Positions 2-8,475 of a stretch of 21,771 bases of DNA are shown in pieces. Under the pieces are notes generated by a model. It had not been told where the DNA came from and made no database searches. It saw nothing but the letters and a program-made list of their open reading frames with translations. The DNA lies in the IMG/VR virus record IMGVR_UViG_3300034121_000542, positions 1-21,771 of that record; one strand, written 5' to 3'. The DNA comes from a virus. The position numbers were made by a program, and so were the translations under genes. The stretch's first letter is position 1. Every line of letters starts with the position of its first letter.

Positions 2-505
2 ACGCTGGCCGTAGGTATCGGCACGAAAGAGAAGGCGTGCAGCGTCGCTGCGCTTAATCTCGCGCTTACGGGCACATTGACAGACGCCGTGCCCGACTGC
101 ATGAGCCGCGTGATCGGGCGCTGGATTATTCGCGTGCAAGACCGCATGCCAGCGACGATTCGCGACAGCCGAGCATGGCGCGATCTGCTGGTGCTGTCGG
201 CGGGCACCGGGCGCGAGCGTGAGGCAAAGCGGCTGGCGCTGGTCATGGCGTGGATGTGGGAAGCGCTGGCACTTGTGCAGCCGAGAGCCGCAGACGCAGC
301 CGCAGCCGCATACGCAGCCGCATCCGCAGACGCAGACGCATACGCAGCCGCATACGCATCCGCATCCGCATACGCAGACGCAGCCGCATACGCAGACGCA
401 GACGCAGACGCATCCGAATACGCATGGACGACCATCGACCCCGTGGGGCTGCTGCGGCGGCTGGTGGCGGTCACGGATGAACGGGCGCTGGCGGTGCAGC
501 CGTGA
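2..505 (+). CDS. Ala-rich repeat phage protein, 5' end cut by the window edge
   Basis: The reading frame is open from the first bases, so the protein starts outside the window. A TTG at 77 lies inside this open frame and is probably not the real start. The visible N-terminal part is an ordinary globular sequence rich in Trp and Arg (for example VIGRWIIRVQDRMP and SAGTGREREAKRL). Then comes a low-complexity Ala-X array encoded by 290-415, where X is only Asp, Ala, Tyr or Ser. A short tail (TTIDPVGLLRRLVAV) closes the protein. Hypothetical phage proteins with a similar layout, a conserved head and a variable Ala-rich tract, are known to me, but their function is not. The stop overlaps the next GTG start by four bases (GTGA), so the two genes are translationally coupled. 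Real coding is supported by the open frame, the coupling and the codon-level pattern of the array. Confidence 0.75.
   Translation, partial: TLAVGIGTKEKACSVAALNLALTGTLTDAVPDCMSRVIGRWIIRVQDRMPATIRDSRAWRDLLVLSAGTGREREAKRLALVMAWMWEALALVQPRAADAAAAAYAAASADADAYAAAYASASAYADAAAYADADADASEYAWTTIDPVGLLRRLVAVTDERALAVQP
290..415 (+). repeat. 21-copy hexanucleotide array encoding Ala-[D/A/Y/S]
   Basis: There are twenty-one in-frame hexamers of the form GCA-KMC (K is G or T, M is A or C). The first codon is GCA in all 21 units. The second codon is GAC (7 times), GCC (5), TAC (5) or TCC (4). All variation is therefore at two neighbouring positions and consists only of G/T and A/C transversions. Ala in the variable slot is always GCC and never GCA. 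The array ends at GAA TAC GCA TGG. Confidence 0.95.
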
Positions 506-2496: not shown

Positions 2497-2563
2497 AGGT
2501 CGGGGATATATGACGGAGGCTGTCTGGGTGGTCCCCCGGCGTCGGGTTCCCGCGCTTTTCGGG

Positions 2564-3030
2564 CGCTTGCCAGCGTTGGCCAGCGCTTGCCAGCGCTACC
2601 CGTTGCCAGCGTTAACACGTTGCCAGTCAACGGGTTAGTCGTTTGCCAGTGCCAACGCTTGCCAGCCGTTGCCCCTGCCCTGCCAGCGTCCCCAGCTTGC
2701 CAGCGTGGGCAGCTTGCCAGCCCCTACGCTGGCCCTGCTGGCTGGCACTGGGCAGCGTTGCCAGTGGGACAGCTTGCCAGCCCCAGCCGTTGCCAGCGTC
2801 CAGCGTTGCCAGCAGCAGCAGCGCCAGCCGTTGCCAGTGGCAGGGTTGAAGCAGCTTGCCAGCGTTACACACGCTGGCCCGTAATGGCCCGTAGCAGCCC
2901 CGTAGACGCCAGAACGGGGGCAGCTTGCTAGGCTGGCCCCCGTTTGTCGGTTTGCTACGCTGGCAGCGCTTGCCAGCCCTGCCCAGCCCCTACGCTGCTG
3001 CCCCCGTTGCCAGCGCTCGAACGCTGGCCA
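2564..3030 (+). repeat. TTGCCAG-rich arm, all copies in one orientation
   Basis: I count about 16 copies of TTGCCAG on the plus strand in about 450 bp and no CTGGCAA (the reverse complement). Copies are usually preceded by CG, CGC or AGC and followed by CG, CC or TG. Spacing is irregular, so this is neither a tandem array nor a CRISPR. The right end runs into the 3' end of the AAA+ partner gene. It shares CGCTCGAACGCTGG (3014-3027) with the right arm (5906-5919). Confidence 0.8.
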
Positions 3031-3883
3031 GCGCTGCCCGTAGGTTCGCGATGGCAGCGTAGCGGCTGTACGCTTGCGGCACGATCAGGCTAACGGGGTG
3101 GACCATGCCAGCGTCAGCAGCTTTAGCAACGGCTGCCGTCAGATCGTGCCCCGTCAGGACAGTGCCCATGCCGTAGGGCACTTTGATCGACGTATGGTAG
3201 TTCCCTGCCCAGCCGTAGACGCGGTACACGCCAGCGTGACCGAAGAGGGCCATAACCGCGTCATCGCGCATGGGCTGATCAGCCAGCTTAACCGTGATAT
3301 CCTGAATGTGCGTACCAGCGCTGCCCATTTCGTTCGCTTTGACTGCCCGTAGTTCGACACGCCAGCCCTGCCCTTCAAGAAGGTCAGTTAGGCAAGCCAT
3401 TTGGACGCCCGTCCAAAAAAAGTCATCGTGACTGGTCCCCCCGCAAGCGCCGAAAGCGCAAGCGATAGAGAGGGCAGCAGGGGCAGACGACAAGCGCTTG
3501 GCCCGTCCTTCGAATGCACGATCCCAGTCCCCAGCTAACGCCGATTCCACGCGCACCGTGTCGCCAGCGTCACGGTAGACGCGGCGGCGACGCATAACCA
3601 GCGCTTCAGGCGTCAGGTCAGCCAGCGGCAGGGCCGCAATGGCCCCCCGTGCTTTCTCAGCCCCAGCGTCCCAGCCAGCCGCAAACAGTGCCTTAACGTC
3701 GTCTAGGCTGGCCACGTCGCCCCACTGCCAGCCCGTATGAATGCCGGACCAGTTCCCCCGTAGTCCGTCAAATTTCTGGGCGTTGACGGGGGGCACTTGG
3801 TCCCCCGTCAGCAGCGTAGGAAGGTCCAGAGGGGACGGTACCCGTAGTACCGTCATTCCCTTGCCAGTCTCTTGAGTAATCAT
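2990..3883 (-). CDS. Partner of the MoxR/CobS-like ATPase, degenerate VWA-like protein
   Basis: The 297-aa product starts at MITQETGKG, where ATG overlaps the TGA stop of the ATPase gene (ATGA). The frame is open further upstream, but that would lie inside the ATPase gene. A basic run MRRRRVYRDAGD lies at about 96-107. After it, residues 137-178 look like the start of a von Willebrand A fold: a strand LSIACAF, a glycine-rich loop GACGGTSHDD, a helix FFWTGVQMACLTDLLEGQG and a second strand WRVELRAV. The metal-site motif DxSxS of true VWA proteins is absent. Phages often carry a protein of this kind beside a CobS/MoxR-type ATPase, as CobT accompanies CobS. The coupling suggests a complex with the ATPase, perhaps as its substrate adaptor. 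The family assignment is inference. Confidence 0.75.
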   Translation of the reverse strand: MITQETGKGMTVLRVPSPLDLPTLLTGDQVPPVNAQKFDGLRGNWSGIHTGWQWGDVASLDDVKALFAAGWDAGAEKARGAIAALPLADLTPEALVMRRRRVYRDAGDTVRVESALAGDWDRAFEGRAKRLSSAPAALSIACAFGACGGTSHDDFFWTGVQMACLTDLLEGQGWRVELRAVKANEMGSAGTHIQDITVKLADQPMRDDAVMALFGHAGVYRVYGWAGNYHTSIKVPYGMGTVLTGHDLTAAVAKAADAGMVHPVSLIVPQAYSRYAAIANLRAALASVRALATGAAA

Positions 3884-5256
3884 AGTCCGCACGCCTGACG
3901 ATCTTCCGTCGTCCAGCTTTGCGTAATGGCCTTGAGCGCTTCGGGCACCGTGTAGGCACATTGGTTGACCAGCAGATCAGCCGTCAGCAGCCCCCGCATC
4001 GTCAGCCAGCGCCGAATCTGGGGACGCTGGGCCAGTACTTCACGGGCTGCATGGATGCGGTCTACAATCGCCGACGTGACGCACAGCGAACGCTCAAGGG
4101 CCAGATCATAGCCCACTTCAACCTGAAACCAGCGATCAACAGACGACGCGTCCAGTTGAGTCCGTCCAGAGTACAAACGGTTTGCCCCCAGCCCGAACGT
4201 ATTAGCAGCGCTCAACAGATAGAAATCAGAATGACGGGCAACCCACTGGCCGTCAGGCGCTTGCCACTTGGTAGAGTCTACCAGATTGTTCACGCTCAAC
4301 ATGACGTTTTCATCCATGGCGTCGATTTCGTCCATGAGATAGACGCCCCCGTCACGATAGCAGCGCACTAGCTGAGACGGGGCGTAGACTTGCTCCCCCG
4401 TTGAAAGGTTCGGCGTCATCGTGCCCAGTAACCGCCCTTCCGTCAGCCCAGCAGAGCCATTGACCGTACCAAAAGGCACCCCGAACGCCTCAGCAGCTTG
4501 AGACGCCAGCGTCGTCTTGCCAGTGCCAGCAGGCCCCACCAGCATAACGTTTAACCGTTTGCCAGTGGCAGGGCTGACAGCCCCCAGCAGGGGCAACAGC
4601 TTGCCCAACATGGCGTGGGAACGGGCAGCAGAAAGGGGACGGGGTTCAGCTTGATTGATCTGGACGTGAACGACTGACGGGCCAGCAGGGGCAGCAGCGC
4701 TGGCAACTTTCGCCTCTAATTCTGAAATCCGAGTTTCGACAAGCTGGGAAACAACGCCAGCGATCAGGGCGTCGAAACCGGAGGCAACGGGGGCAGCAGT
4801 GGCGGGGGACATAGCGGCGGGGGCTGGGGTGGGGGACTGGACGGGGGCAGGGGTAGCGCTGGGGGCAGCTTTCGGGGCCGGATAATTCTCCCCTACCATC
4901 GGGGGCGCGCCACGGCTGGTGATGATTTTTTCGGCTGGCAGCTTTGCTAGGTGAACGGCTACTGATTCCTTCCCCCGTTGAAATACGAAAATGATTTCAA
5001 GGGTACCGTAGTAATGCTCACAATCGACGACGATACCCCAGCTATCGGCAGGGATTAGCACGTTCGATATATCAATGTGCAGCCGAGAAGTGTCCCCCTT
5101 ATATCCATTGTCGGCCAGCTTCTGTCGGGTTGCTGCTGAATCTGTATGAAGCATCGTGATGGGCGTGATTTGGTAATCACTGCCCAGCTTCAGTCTTCGC
5201 CCTGACACAATGCCAACGGTGCCAGTTAACGGGGTACGGGGCAACGGGGTAGACAT
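3880..5256 (-). CDS. MoxR/CobS-type AAA+ ATPase
   Basis: The 458-aa product starts at MSTPLPRTPL. The start is chosen because GAGGAA (5261-5266, minus strand) lies four bases upstream. The frame stays open to 5427, but the added residues have no family features. Residues 1-117 form an N-terminal domain of unknown type. Residues 118-160 are a Pro/Ala-rich linker (PAPVQSPTPAPAAMSP), and 165-188 form a short helix. The AAA+ core follows: Walker A GPAGTGKT at 241-248, Walker B VYLMDEID at 305-312, sensor-1 SAANTFG at 349-355 and an arginine in SSVDRWF at 371-377. The combination DEIDAMDENVM and AANTFGLGANR is typical of MoxR/CobS ATPases, which remodel proteins with a VWA-type partner. The next gene, coupled by ATGA, is probably that partner. 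The phage target is unknown. Confidence 0.92.
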   Translation of the reverse strand: MSTPLPRTPLTGTVGIVSGRRLKLGSDYQITPITMLHTDSAATRQKLADNGYKGDTSRLHIDISNVLIPADSWGIVVDCEHYYGTLEIIFVFQRGKESVAVHLAKLPAEKIITSRGAPPMVGENYPAPKAAPSATPAPVQSPTPAPAAMSPATAAPVASGFDALIAGVVSQLVETRISELEAKVASAAAPAGPSVVHVQINQAEPRPLSAARSHAMLGKLLPLLGAVSPATGKRLNVMLVGPAGTGKTTLASQAAEAFGVPFGTVNGSAGLTEGRLLGTMTPNLSTGEQVYAPSQLVRCYRDGGVYLMDEIDAMDENVMLSVNNLVDSTKWQAPDGQWVARHSDFYLLSAANTFGLGANRLYSGRTQLDASSVDRWFQVEVGYDLALERSLCVTSAIVDRIHAAREVLAQRPQIRRWLTMRGLLTADLLVNQCAYTVPEALKAITQSWTTEDRQACGL

Positions 5257-5389
5257 AGGGTTCCTCTGGCGGGGGTTGTCTTGCGGGTTCCAACGGTACT
5301 GGACTGTCAAGGTATCGGCTGGCGTGTGCAATGTCAACGGTAGGGCAGGGGGCAAAATACAAGGGACAACAGCCCAGCCCCTGACTCTC

Positions 5390-5395
5390 ATTATA
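5390..5395 (-). promoter_or_regulatory. Candidate -10 box (TATAAT) upstream of the AAA+ operon
   Basis: A perfect minus-strand TATAAT lies about 135 bases before the ATPase start, but its -35 region (TCGAAC at 5413-5418) is poor. Alternative signals are minus-strand TTGACA at 5332-5337, followed after 17 bp by TACCTT, and another TTGACA at 5305-5310. One of these probably drives the operon. I cannot tell which. Confidence 0.4.
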
Positions 5396-5585
5396 TAGGG
5401 GCGCTTTTCAGTGTTCGAATCAGTCAACGAAAGCAGTGGAAATCACTGGCAAACCAGCGCCAAACTGGCCCGATTAAATCCCGAAAGCGAAATCGATTCT
5501 AACGCGTTTACCCCCCTCCCCCGTACAGAGCCATTGACATCACCCCGTTCGTCGATCTGGGGGGAATTTCACTTTTTGGAAAAAG

Positions 5586-5828: not shown

Positions 5829-5876
5829 TATTGCCAGCCCACCCACCGCCAGCCGATGCAACGGGGGACGCTGGGG

Positions 5877-6190
5877 CTGGCAACGCTGGGGCGCTGGACT
5901 GGCAACGCTCGAACGCTGGGGGCGCTGGGGCGCTGCTGCTGCTGGGGGCGCTGGCAACGCTGCTCAGTTTGGGGACAGCTTCCCTAAGTGTCAGTGCCCA
6001 CGCCCCCGCGCGCGATCTATAGCGTGTCAAAGTGACACACCCCACGCTGGCCCGTAGTGGGCAGGGCCAGCAGCAGCCCCACGCCCCACGCCCACGCCCT
6101 GCCAGCGCTGGCAACGGGCAGCAGGGGCCAGCCAGCAGCCCAGACGGGGCAGCGCTGGCGTTCGAGCGCTGGCGCTGGCAACGCTGGCAA
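5877..6190 (+). repeat. CTGGCAA-rich arm, mostly opposite in orientation to the left arm
   Basis: CTGGCAA occurs at 5877, 5899, 5951, 6108, 6175 and 6184, usually as CGCTGGCAACG. The reverse form TTGCCAG occurs once, at 5831. The element GCGTTCGAGCG appears inverted at 6158-6168 relative to the copies at 3014 and 5906. CACGCTGGCCCGTA near 6042 also occurs near 2870 in the left arm. Confidence 0.75.
6024..6038. promoter_or_regulatory. GTGTC-n5-GACAC dyad, copy 1
   Basis: GTGTCAAAGTGACAC is a 15-base inverted repeat. The same architecture recurs at 6353-6367, upstream of terS. It is a plausible operator for a dimeric repressor or activator. Confidence 0.55.
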
Positions 6191-7016: not shown

Positions 7017-7052
7017 CCCTAACGGTACTAGTTATTAGTGAACGTAGTAAAC

Positions 7053-7140
7053 GTGAACGAGTGAACGAGTAAACTCGTCAACGAGTAAACGAGTAGCTGC
7101 GTAAACGAGTAAACGAGTTAACGAGTTAACGAGGGAACGA
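7053..7140 (+). repeat. Eleven-copy octamer array ending at the terL start codon
   Basis: The 88 bases divide exactly into eleven octamers of consensus GTAAACGA. Variants include GTGAACGA, GTTAACGA, GTCAACGA and GGGAACGA, plus two more diverged units (7069-7076 and 7093-7100). A twelfth unit would begin with the GTG start of terL at 7141. Looser copies precede it (7038-7052). The last unit supplies the terL ribosome-binding site GAGGGA (7131-7136). Confidence 0.9.
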
Positions 7141-8475
7141 GTGGCGTCTGTACGTGGAAAGCATAAATCTGGCGCAACGGAGGTGGAGGTTCGCCTCCAT
7201 AAGCGCCACCCCGGTCAGGCGAAGATCGCCGTTCACCCTGCGCGGTTTAGGGTGGTCATGTGCGGGAGACGGTGGGGGAAGTCGGCCTGTGGGATTCGGG
7301 AAGCCAGCGATGTGGCGATTGCAGGACAGCCCGTAGGCTGGTTTGCGCCCACCTACAAGCTGGCGCTAGAAGCATGGCGGGAGTTGGTGGAGCGGCTGGC
7401 GCCCATTACAGCGCGGATGAACGAGCAGGACAAGCGGTTGGAACTGGTGACGGGTGGGATCATCGAAGTCTGGACGCTGGACACCCCAGATGCCGCCCGA
7501 GGCCGCAAATATGCGCTGGTGGTGATTGACGAGGCGGGTATTGCCCGTGATTTGCTGGAAGTCTGGCAAGCCGCCATCCGTCCCACACTGGTCGATTTGA
7601 AGGGTCGGGCGCTGATATTAGGCACGCCAAAGGGCCGCCGACACGGGTTTGTGGTGCTGTTTAACCGTGGATTGGGCGAAGACCCAGATTGGGCCAGCTT
7701 TCGGGCCTCGACGCTGGAAAACCCGTACATCCCCGCCGAAGAAGTCGAAGCGGCCCGAAAAGAGTTGCCACCCGAAGTGTTTGCCCAAGAATTTGAAGGC
7801 ATCCCCACGGACGATGGCGCAAACCCGTTCGGTCTGGAGGCGATCCGTGCCAGCCTTGGGCCGCTGTCGGACCAGCCCGTGGTGGTCTACGGCGTGGACT
7901 TGGCCCGATCCATGGACTTTACCGTGCTGGTGGGGTTCGACGCCTACCGCCGAGTGGCTTTCCTAGACCGCTGGCAGGCCCCGTGGGCCATTACGAAGGC
8001 CAAGATCAAGGCCAAGGTCGAAGACACGCCGATTGTGGCTGACGCGACCGGTGTGGGCGATGCCATCGTGGCTGATCTGCAAGTCATGGGGGTCAACGTC
8101 ACGCCTCATGTGTTCACCCAATCGTCCAAGCTCCGGTTGATGCAGCGGCTGGTGGCGGCGTTCCAAGGCAAGGAACTGACGTTGCCTGATGCCGACGATG
8201 CCCGCTGGCTGACCAGCGAGATGGAGGCGTTTGAGTTTACGTATACGGCCACCGGCGTCCGCTATGAGGCCCCGAGCGGGTTCCATGACGACGGCGTGAT
8301 GGCCGTGGCGCTGGCGCTACACGGCTGGGATCGGGTACAGGGAGCCGTCCCAGAAGCCCCGCCGGGATTGCGCGTAATTGTAGACGACCCCTATGTTTCT
8401 CCAGAGAACGGCCCTGCCATGGCGTTTCCGCCCGCAGGAGACTTCCAATCGCAACTGCCCGGATCGGGCTGGTAA
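7141..8475 (+). CDS. terL: Terminase large subunit (ATPase and nuclease)
   Basis: The 444-aa product starts with GTG at 7141, six bases after GAGGGA. The N-terminal ATPase has Walker A CGRRWGKS (41-48), Walker B ALVVIDE (125-131) and the coupling motif LILGTPKG (158-165). The C-terminal RNase H-like nuclease has the expected acidic residues: D253 in VVYGVDLARSMDF, D301 in VADATGVGDAI and D383/D384 in GFHDDGVMAVALAL. TerL docks on the portal, pumps DNA into the procapsid and cuts it. The length is typical of compact terminases and both domains are complete. It follows terS across the octamer array, and portal lies about 4 kb downstream, farther than in many phages. Confidence 0.97.
   Translation: MASVRGKHKSGATEVEVRLHKRHPGQAKIAVHPARFRVVMCGRRWGKSACGIREASDVAIAGQPVGWFAPTYKLALEAWRELVERLAPITARMNEQDKRLELVTGGIIEVWTLDTPDAARGRKYALVVIDEAGIARDLLEVWQAAIRPTLVDLKGRALILGTPKGRRHGFVVLFNRGLGEDPDWASFRASTLENPYIPAEEVEAARKELPPEVFAQEFEGIPTDDGANPFGLEAIRASLGPLSDQPVVVYGVDLARSMDFTVLVGFDAYRRVAFLDRWQAPWAITKAKIKAKVEDTPIVADATGVGDAIVADLQVMGVNVTPHVFTQSSKLRLMQRLVAAFQGKELTLPDADDARWLTSEMEAFEFTYTATGVRYEAPSGFHDDGVMAVALALHGWDRVQGAVPEAPPGLRVIVDDPYVSPENGPAMAFPPAGDFQSQLPGSGW

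What the first reader, a model, noticed from the sequence alone, without database searches (positions are those of the whole stretch)
290..415. Ala-X array written in a pure KMC code
All 21 variable codons are GAC, GCC, TAC or TCC, and all 21 fixed codons are GCA. Each repeat thus carries two two-state positions (G/T, then A/C). All four states occur with similar counts (7, 5, 5, 4), and there is no transition and no third-position change. Drift in an Ala-rich tract should also give GCG, GCT, GAT or TAT. The set Tyr/Ala/Asp/Ser is the one that the KMT degenerate codon gives in synthetic binder libraries. This suggests either an unusual transversion-restricted mutation process or selection for a minimal recognition alphabet built by unequal exchange.
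Basis: partly seen in the sequence, partly recalled or inferred. Interest (0 to 1): 0.72.

Follow-up and report, generated by a model that had tools for sequence, protein, structure and literature searches.

The report
Fast-changing alanine-rich phage protein array
A small phage protein of unknown function carries an alanine-rich stretch of repeats that is copied, deleted and reshuffled far faster than the rest of its gene, so each phage writes it with almost one codon per amino acid; the odd 'KMC code' seen here is one instance of that general pattern, not a special mutation process.

Summary
In detail: 290-415 is 21 hexamers GCA-KMC (GAC 7, GCC 5, TAC 5, TCC 4). It lies in a gene (2-505) cut by the window start, whose head has no Pfam, PHROG or NCBIfam match. 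About 95 viral-contig relatives share the head, a short C-terminal motif and an Ala-rich array between them. Array synonymous-codon entropy is far below each phage's own codon usage in 61/61 distinct arrays (0.33 against 1.51 bits), and in 68/68 arrays of a second head family. Each array has its own frozen 'dialect' (GCA/NNC, all NNT, mostly NNG). The dialect sets which residues can be written (D/Y in NNY, E/W in NNG), yet acidic and aromatic content stays similar. Arrays are reshuffled between genes with near-identical flanks; 20 mycobacteriophages with heads 0-3/444 nt apart carry 12 different arrays. Transitions are common among alignable changes, so a transversion-restricted process is rejected. 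No reverse transcriptase was found. Best reading: rapid unit duplication and deletion removes synonymous variants, while selection keeps a mixed Ala/acidic/aromatic/(Arg/Ser) helical insert. AlphaFold2 shows it inside a compact helical domain with no PDB match. The molecular function remains unknown; a host-interaction role is a guess.

The parts
2..505 (+). Gene with the array, 5' end cut by the window start (the full gene is in L022, 5947-6501 plus stop, GTG start)
   Evidence: Open frame to the stop at 503-505; full-length in L022; L022 identical to the window over the 6283 bases compared
2..283 (+). Conserved helical head (ACS[IV]AA[IL]NLAL..L[TS]D..P.CMS..I..WII.VQD.MP motif)
   Evidence: About 95 relatives in viral contigs and 2 in bacterial MAGs; no Pfam, PHROG or NCBIfam match; AF2 pLDDT mostly above 90
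290..415 (+). Pure (GCA-KMC)x21 array, protein (A-[D/A/Y/S])x21
   Evidence: modelled as helices at lower confidence, about 66-80
284..289 (+). Left edge of the array (AGA GCC). The linker AD..GYG..W..M..RERT, conserved in most relatives, is missing here between head and array
   Evidence: L022 against L023; near-invariant linker columns in A2
416..424 (+). Imperfect right edge of the array (GAA TAC GCA)
425..502 (+). Conserved C-terminal motif W..hDP..LLxRLIxV, predicted to pack onto the head
   Evidence: Present in most complete relatives; pLDDT 94-98, pTM 0.83 for the whole model

Best explanation
The array is a hypervariable, Ala-rich helical insert between the head and the C-terminal helix of a small phage-encoded helical protein. 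Shown: units of a few codons are repeatedly duplicated, deleted and exchanged, far more often than single bases change in the flanks. Inferred from that: such turnover keeps replacing the array with copies of a few founder units. Synonymous variants are therefore lost and each residue ends up written with nearly one codon per array (here GCA for the fixed Ala, NNC for the variable slot). Selection on the protein keeps the variable slots mixed (Ala, acidic, aromatic, plus Arg/Ser/Asn), whatever third base the founder had. GCA-KMC is the dialect GCA/NNC carrying D, Y, S and A. Likely but untested: the array is a helical surface of variable length whose acidic and aromatic residues matter, perhaps for contact with a host factor; the sub-claim of a host-interaction role stands at about 0.3.
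For: Frozen codons: 61/61 arrays below expectation, mean 0.33 against 1.51 bits, 60 with p<=0.01; replicated 68/68 in a second head family, 0.29 against 1.53. Turnover: L049/L051 flanks 338/339 and 299/300 identical, arrays 48 and 65 codons and rearranged, all NNT; also L032/L036, L076/L085, L022/L023. Clean block deletions with 0/375 and 0/360 head differences (L247/L252, L275/L277). 20 isolated mycobacteriophages, heads 0-3/444 nt apart, 12 different arrays. Residue selection: codons two changes from Ala at positions 1-2 (mainly Y, W, R, N) make up nearly half of non-Ala codons, 313/648 and 303/666; acidic fraction 0.096/0.102 and aromatic fraction 0.082/0.062 are similar in NNY and NNR arrays although the residues switch from D,Y to E,W. 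Minimum changes per array give nonsynonymous:synonymous 4.8 and 3.8 against 2.3 expected. A toy simulation with duplication/deletion 10-30 times point mutation plus composition selection gives codon entropy 0.58-0.37 and residue entropy 1.67-1.50, near the observed 0.33/0.29 and 1.68/1.44. Codon preference does not explain the dialect: the dominant Ala codon is the phage's own favourite in only 28/68 second-family arrays, and GCA is 0.16 of Ala here.
Against: In event terms the shortage of synonymous changes is only about two-fold, so selection on residues is moderate rather than extreme. A few members lack the array or have it degenerate (L026, L047, L075), so it is not always needed. A few arrays mix Ala codons, and one (L221) is not significantly depressed. 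The simulation is a toy with arbitrary thresholds. Nothing here shows what the protein binds or does.
Confidence: 0.72

Rival explanations
1. Neutral low-complexity insert: slippage and unequal exchange alone make the array, the residue mix is a founder accident, and the protein merely tolerates it.
For: Turnover is directly visible; some members lack or have degenerate arrays; the array is the least confident part of the model; frameshifted versions exist (L033, L058, Ardmore).
Against: From Ala codons the easiest neutral changes are transitions to Thr and Val; instead D/E, Y/W and R dominate in both dialects. Acidic and aromatic content is similar whichever third base is used. Simulation without selection at high turnover loses synonymous and residue diversity together. 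Arrays of similar make-up occur in several different head families.
Confidence: 0.2
2. DNA- or RNA-level selection: the hexamer itself is a site (protein binding, structure, pausing or an overlapping frame), and the amino acids follow.
For: One base pattern runs through the whole array; all frames are open across it; the same GCA-KMC hexamer recurs in unrelated reading frames elsewhere (QPQP, RSRS).
Against: Relatives with the same head use wholly different DNA (all GCT/NNT, GCG/NNG, GCC/NNC) for chemically similar residues. No DNA motif or overlapping frame is kept.
Confidence: 0.05
3. A transversion-restricted mutation process acts on the two variable bases of each hexamer.
For: Within 290-415 only G/T and A/C states occur; codon-type trees are transversion-rich (140 ts, 275 tv and 95 ts, 256 tv).
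Against: The favoured residues (D, E, Y, W, S) are reached from Ala by transversions, so selection gives the same excess. Closest relatives contain GTC, CGC, CAC, ACA. Among near-identical mycobacteriophages most alignable changes are transitions.
Confidence: 0.03
4. Diversity-generating retroelement or similar targeted mutagenesis with a fixed third base.
For: DGR targets also vary codon positions 1 and 2 with a fixed pyrimidine third base (established knowledge).
Against: No RVT_1 (PF00078) in 35 of the records carrying these genes, while the control genomes rang (several records are fragments). The states are not adenine-derived, and whole units move rather than single bases.
Confidence: 0.02
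5. Assembly artefact of a repeat.
For: Contigs end close downstream of the head far more often than upstream (16 against 3 of 80; 14 against 2 of 80 within 300 bases).
Against: The same kind of array with the same behaviour is in many plaque-purified, deposited mycobacteriophage genomes, with identical arrays recurring in independent isolates, and the window array recurs unchanged in a second record.
Confidence: 0.02

Closest known systems
Intragenic variable-number tandem repeats, e.g. amino-acid tandem repeats of Borg elements (PMC9879509)
   Same: Tandem units within a reading frame, recently formed, fast-changing, kept in frame, similar composition in similar proteins (per the paper's abstract)
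   Different: Units are 2-4 codons with many variants rather than perfect repeats; predicted helical rather than disordered; Ala-based with a D/E, Y/W, R alphabet; in tailed phages
Caulobacter phage Cr30 AGS80886.1 and its family (second head family here)
   Same: Head + Ala-rich frozen-codon array + short conserved C-terminal helix; models of both families hit the same three viral models; head profiles align end to end (E 0.003)
   Different: Only weak sequence similarity; different C-terminal motif
phrog_3416 / mycobacteriophage cluster J proteins (Courthouse gp101, Halley gp112)
   Same: Unknown function, Ala-rich GCC/NNC array of D, Y, N, T, hypervariable between near-identical phages
   Different: No significant profile similarity of heads (E 0.35)
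Imm5_like (PF21805)
   Same: One array-bearing protein from the pattern scan (L204) matches this family and runs into an A/D/Y array
   Different: The window protein has no match to it
Diversity-generating retroelements
   Same: Codon positions 1 and 2 vary with a fixed third base
   Different: No reverse transcriptase found, unit-level exchange, restricted alphabet

Membership tests
Intragenic tandem-repeat array under concerted evolution | Head-to-tail units in one frame | tested here: met
   21 hexamers in register
Intragenic tandem-repeat array under concerted evolution | Units more alike within an array than expected | tested here: met
   61/61 and 68/68 arrays
Intragenic tandem-repeat array under concerted evolution | Copy number or order differs between close relatives | tested here: met
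   L049/L051, L247/L252, L275/L277, 12 arrays in 20 cluster J phages
Diversity-generating retroelement target | Reverse transcriptase in the genome | tested here: not met
   0 of 35 records; some records are fragments
Diversity-generating retroelement target | Adenine-templated substitutions | tested here: not met
   G/T and A/C states here; unit gains and losses in relatives
phrog_3416 (mycobacteriophage family) | Head homology | tested here: not met
   hhalign E 0.35
Cr30-like head family | Head homology or same fold | tested here: inconclusive
   hhalign E 0.003 over 112 columns but probability 10%; shared Foldseek hits, probability 0.82-1.00
Imm5_like PF21805 | Profile match above the curated cut-off | tested here: not met
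   No Pfam match for the window protein
Known anti-phage defence proteins (PADLOC) | Profile match | tested here: not met
   No match

The most novel reading that the evidence does not exclude
A widespread superfamily of tailed-phage proteins uses a retroelement-free way to diversify. Short units of an Ala/acidic/aromatic alphabet are shuffled by duplication, deletion and exchange between tandem paralogues. This remodels a helical recognition surface in an arms race with host factors, with the alphabet (D/Y or E/W) set by the founder's third base.
Probability: 0.2. Interest if true: 0.82.

Novelty: new variant of a known kind. Interest (0 to 1): 0.5.

Why it matters
Cluster J mycobacteriophages, propagated on a standard laboratory host, carry the same kind of array and differ almost only there within the gene. 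The speed, mechanism and purpose of the shuffling are therefore directly testable in the laboratory. If the array proves to be a selected contact surface, it would be a simple way for phages to diversify a protein without a retroelement. The switch from D/Y to E/W with the third base is a clean natural experiment separating selection on chemistry from codon history.

Tried and rejected
Transversion-only mutation: rejected by relatives and isolates. DGR: no reverse transcriptase. Codon preference: the dominant Ala codon is often not the phage's favourite. DNA site or overlapping frame: dialects differ completely between relatives. Horizontal spread of the GCA-KMC DNA between the two head families: shared runs no longer than unit shuffles in 14 of 15 comparisons; recurrence looks convergent. 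PDB fold relatives: none. PADLOC: none. Literature: no paper on these arrays found in the held library; the cluster J genome paper does not mention alanine. Bacterial genomes: only 2 relatives in MAGs; plasmids: none. A first-pass array delimitation by motif was replaced by a maximal-scoring Ala segment.

Full report
What is there. Positions 290-415 are 42 codons: GCA at all 21 odd places and GAC 7, GCC 5, TAC 5, TCC 4 at the even places. The array is inside an open frame at 2-505. The window begins inside the gene; record L022 (39,252 bases, identical over the 6283 bases compared) holds the rest. The protein there is 185 residues: a conserved head, the array, and a short conserved C-terminus. 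No Pfam, PHROG or NCBIfam model matches it.

Relatives. A profile scan of viral contigs found 95 encoding relatives (80 kept, L022-L101), and genome contigs gave two MAG contigs, named Gemmatimonas and Micrococcales. Among named phages only Synechococcus phage S-H1 matches, and its record ends inside the gene. Most complete members have head, Ala-rich array and the motif W..hDP..LLxRLIxV. Many have a linker AD..GFG..W..M..ERT before the array; the window's own protein lacks it, as if array events had removed it.

Frozen codons. In each relative the array has its own dialect: GCA with NNC (window clade), GCT with NNT, GCC with NNC, mostly GCG with NNG, and a few with a different third base per slot, such as GCC with NNT. 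Given the residues, codons were redrawn from each phage's own usage: 61 of 61 distinct arrays have lower synonymous entropy than expected, mean 0.33 against 1.51 bits, 60 with p<=0.01. A second head family, found through the hexamer pattern scan and represented by Caulobacter phage Cr30, repeats this in 68 of 68 arrays, 0.29 against 1.53 bits. Arrays with only A, D, Y and S occur elsewhere too (4 of 61, the window's own included, and 14 of 68).

Why it is frozen. Pairs with nearly identical flanks carry different arrays: L049/L051 differ at 1 of 339 bases upstream and 1 of 300 downstream, yet have 48 and 65 codons in different order, all ending in T; L076/L085, L032/L036 and L022/L023 behave alike, with heads 96-99% identical. 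Two pairs differ by one clean block of 32 or 26 codons with no change in 375 or 360 bases of head. Identical arrays with heads 84% identical (L063/L090), and arrays differing only by a short gap with heads 88% identical (L050/L077), point to recombination at the array. In 20 isolated cluster J mycobacteriophages, whose array gene has a different head family (phrog_3416), heads differ at 0-3 of 444 bases but there are 12 different arrays, with nearly all codons ending in C. In the nine aligned pairs of those arrays the point differences are nonsynonymous except one GGT/GGC, and most are transitions. A toy simulation with duplication/deletion 10-30 times commoner than point mutation and selection on composition gives values near those observed.

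Selection on residues. Non-Ala residues in NNY arrays are led by D 27%, Y 23%, R 14%, S 14%; in NNR arrays by E 25%, R 20%, W 17%. Nearly half need two base changes from an Ala codon, while the easy transition products Thr and Val are minor. Acidic and aromatic fractions are similar in the two classes although the residues themselves switch. Counting the fewest changes that connect the codons of each array gives nonsynonymous:synonymous 4.8 and 3.8 against 2.3 expected. That is a moderate excess, so most of the freeze is due to copying and not to an absence of synonymous mutation.

Structure and setting. AlphaFold2 models the protein with mean pLDDT 88.5 and pTM 0.83; head and C-terminal motif are mostly above 90, and the array is helical at about 66-80. 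The array is thus most simply an insert between two parts of one helical domain. No PDB entry resembles it. The model of the second family (mean pLDDT 80.5, pTM 0.82) hits the same three viral models, and head profiles align end to end with weak support (E 0.003), which suggests one fold. Upstream in L022 lie a primase/helicase, a Mom-like DNA modification protein, a Holliday-junction resolvase-like protein and a small protein of unknown function. That reads as an early, non-structural region. No reverse transcriptase was found in 35 records, and no PADLOC match.

Verdict. The transversion-restricted reading is rejected; the 'minimal alphabet built by unequal exchange' reading is supported in general form. 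What the protein does is unknown; a host-contact role is inferred only from fast change, tandem copies and the early setting.

Noticed in passing
L034 5905-7348; L037 5306-6621; L038 440-1341; L050 763-2819; L077 5436-7495: Two or three tandem copies of the same gene in one phage, each with a different array in a similar dialect.
   Followed up: partly
L076 4486-5199 and 6017-6889: Two genes with different heads in one phage carry arrays in the same AGC/GCG/TGG/AGG dialect and share an 18-codon run (P 0.02-0.002 against shuffles), suggesting exchange between genes.
   Followed up: partly
L204, L289, L290: Ala-rich arrays on yet other heads: L204 matches Imm5_like PF21805; L289/L290 carry a second array gene with a mixed dialect.
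   Followed up: partly
L199 5435-5683; L214 4639-4887: A second, different repeat (APATATATAT...) about 1.8 kb downstream of an array gene, on the same strand in the scan.
   Followed up: no
window 2563-2893 and 5858-5963: Clusters of degenerate repeats around CAGCGTTGCCAGC / CTGGCAACGCTG.
   Followed up: no
window 7037-7142: Repeat of about 4.5 copies of AGTGAACGAGTAAACTCGTAAACG just upstream of the large terminase gene.
   Followed up: no
window 3880-5427 (-): AAA_5 ATPase matching phrog_249 (labelled porphyrin biosynthesis); the frame has a Pro/Ala-rich N-terminal part.
   Followed up: no
families L022-L101 and L247-L326: Contigs end within 300 bases downstream of the head in 30 of 160 cases, against 5 of 160 upstream: arrays break assemblies.
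   Followed up: yes
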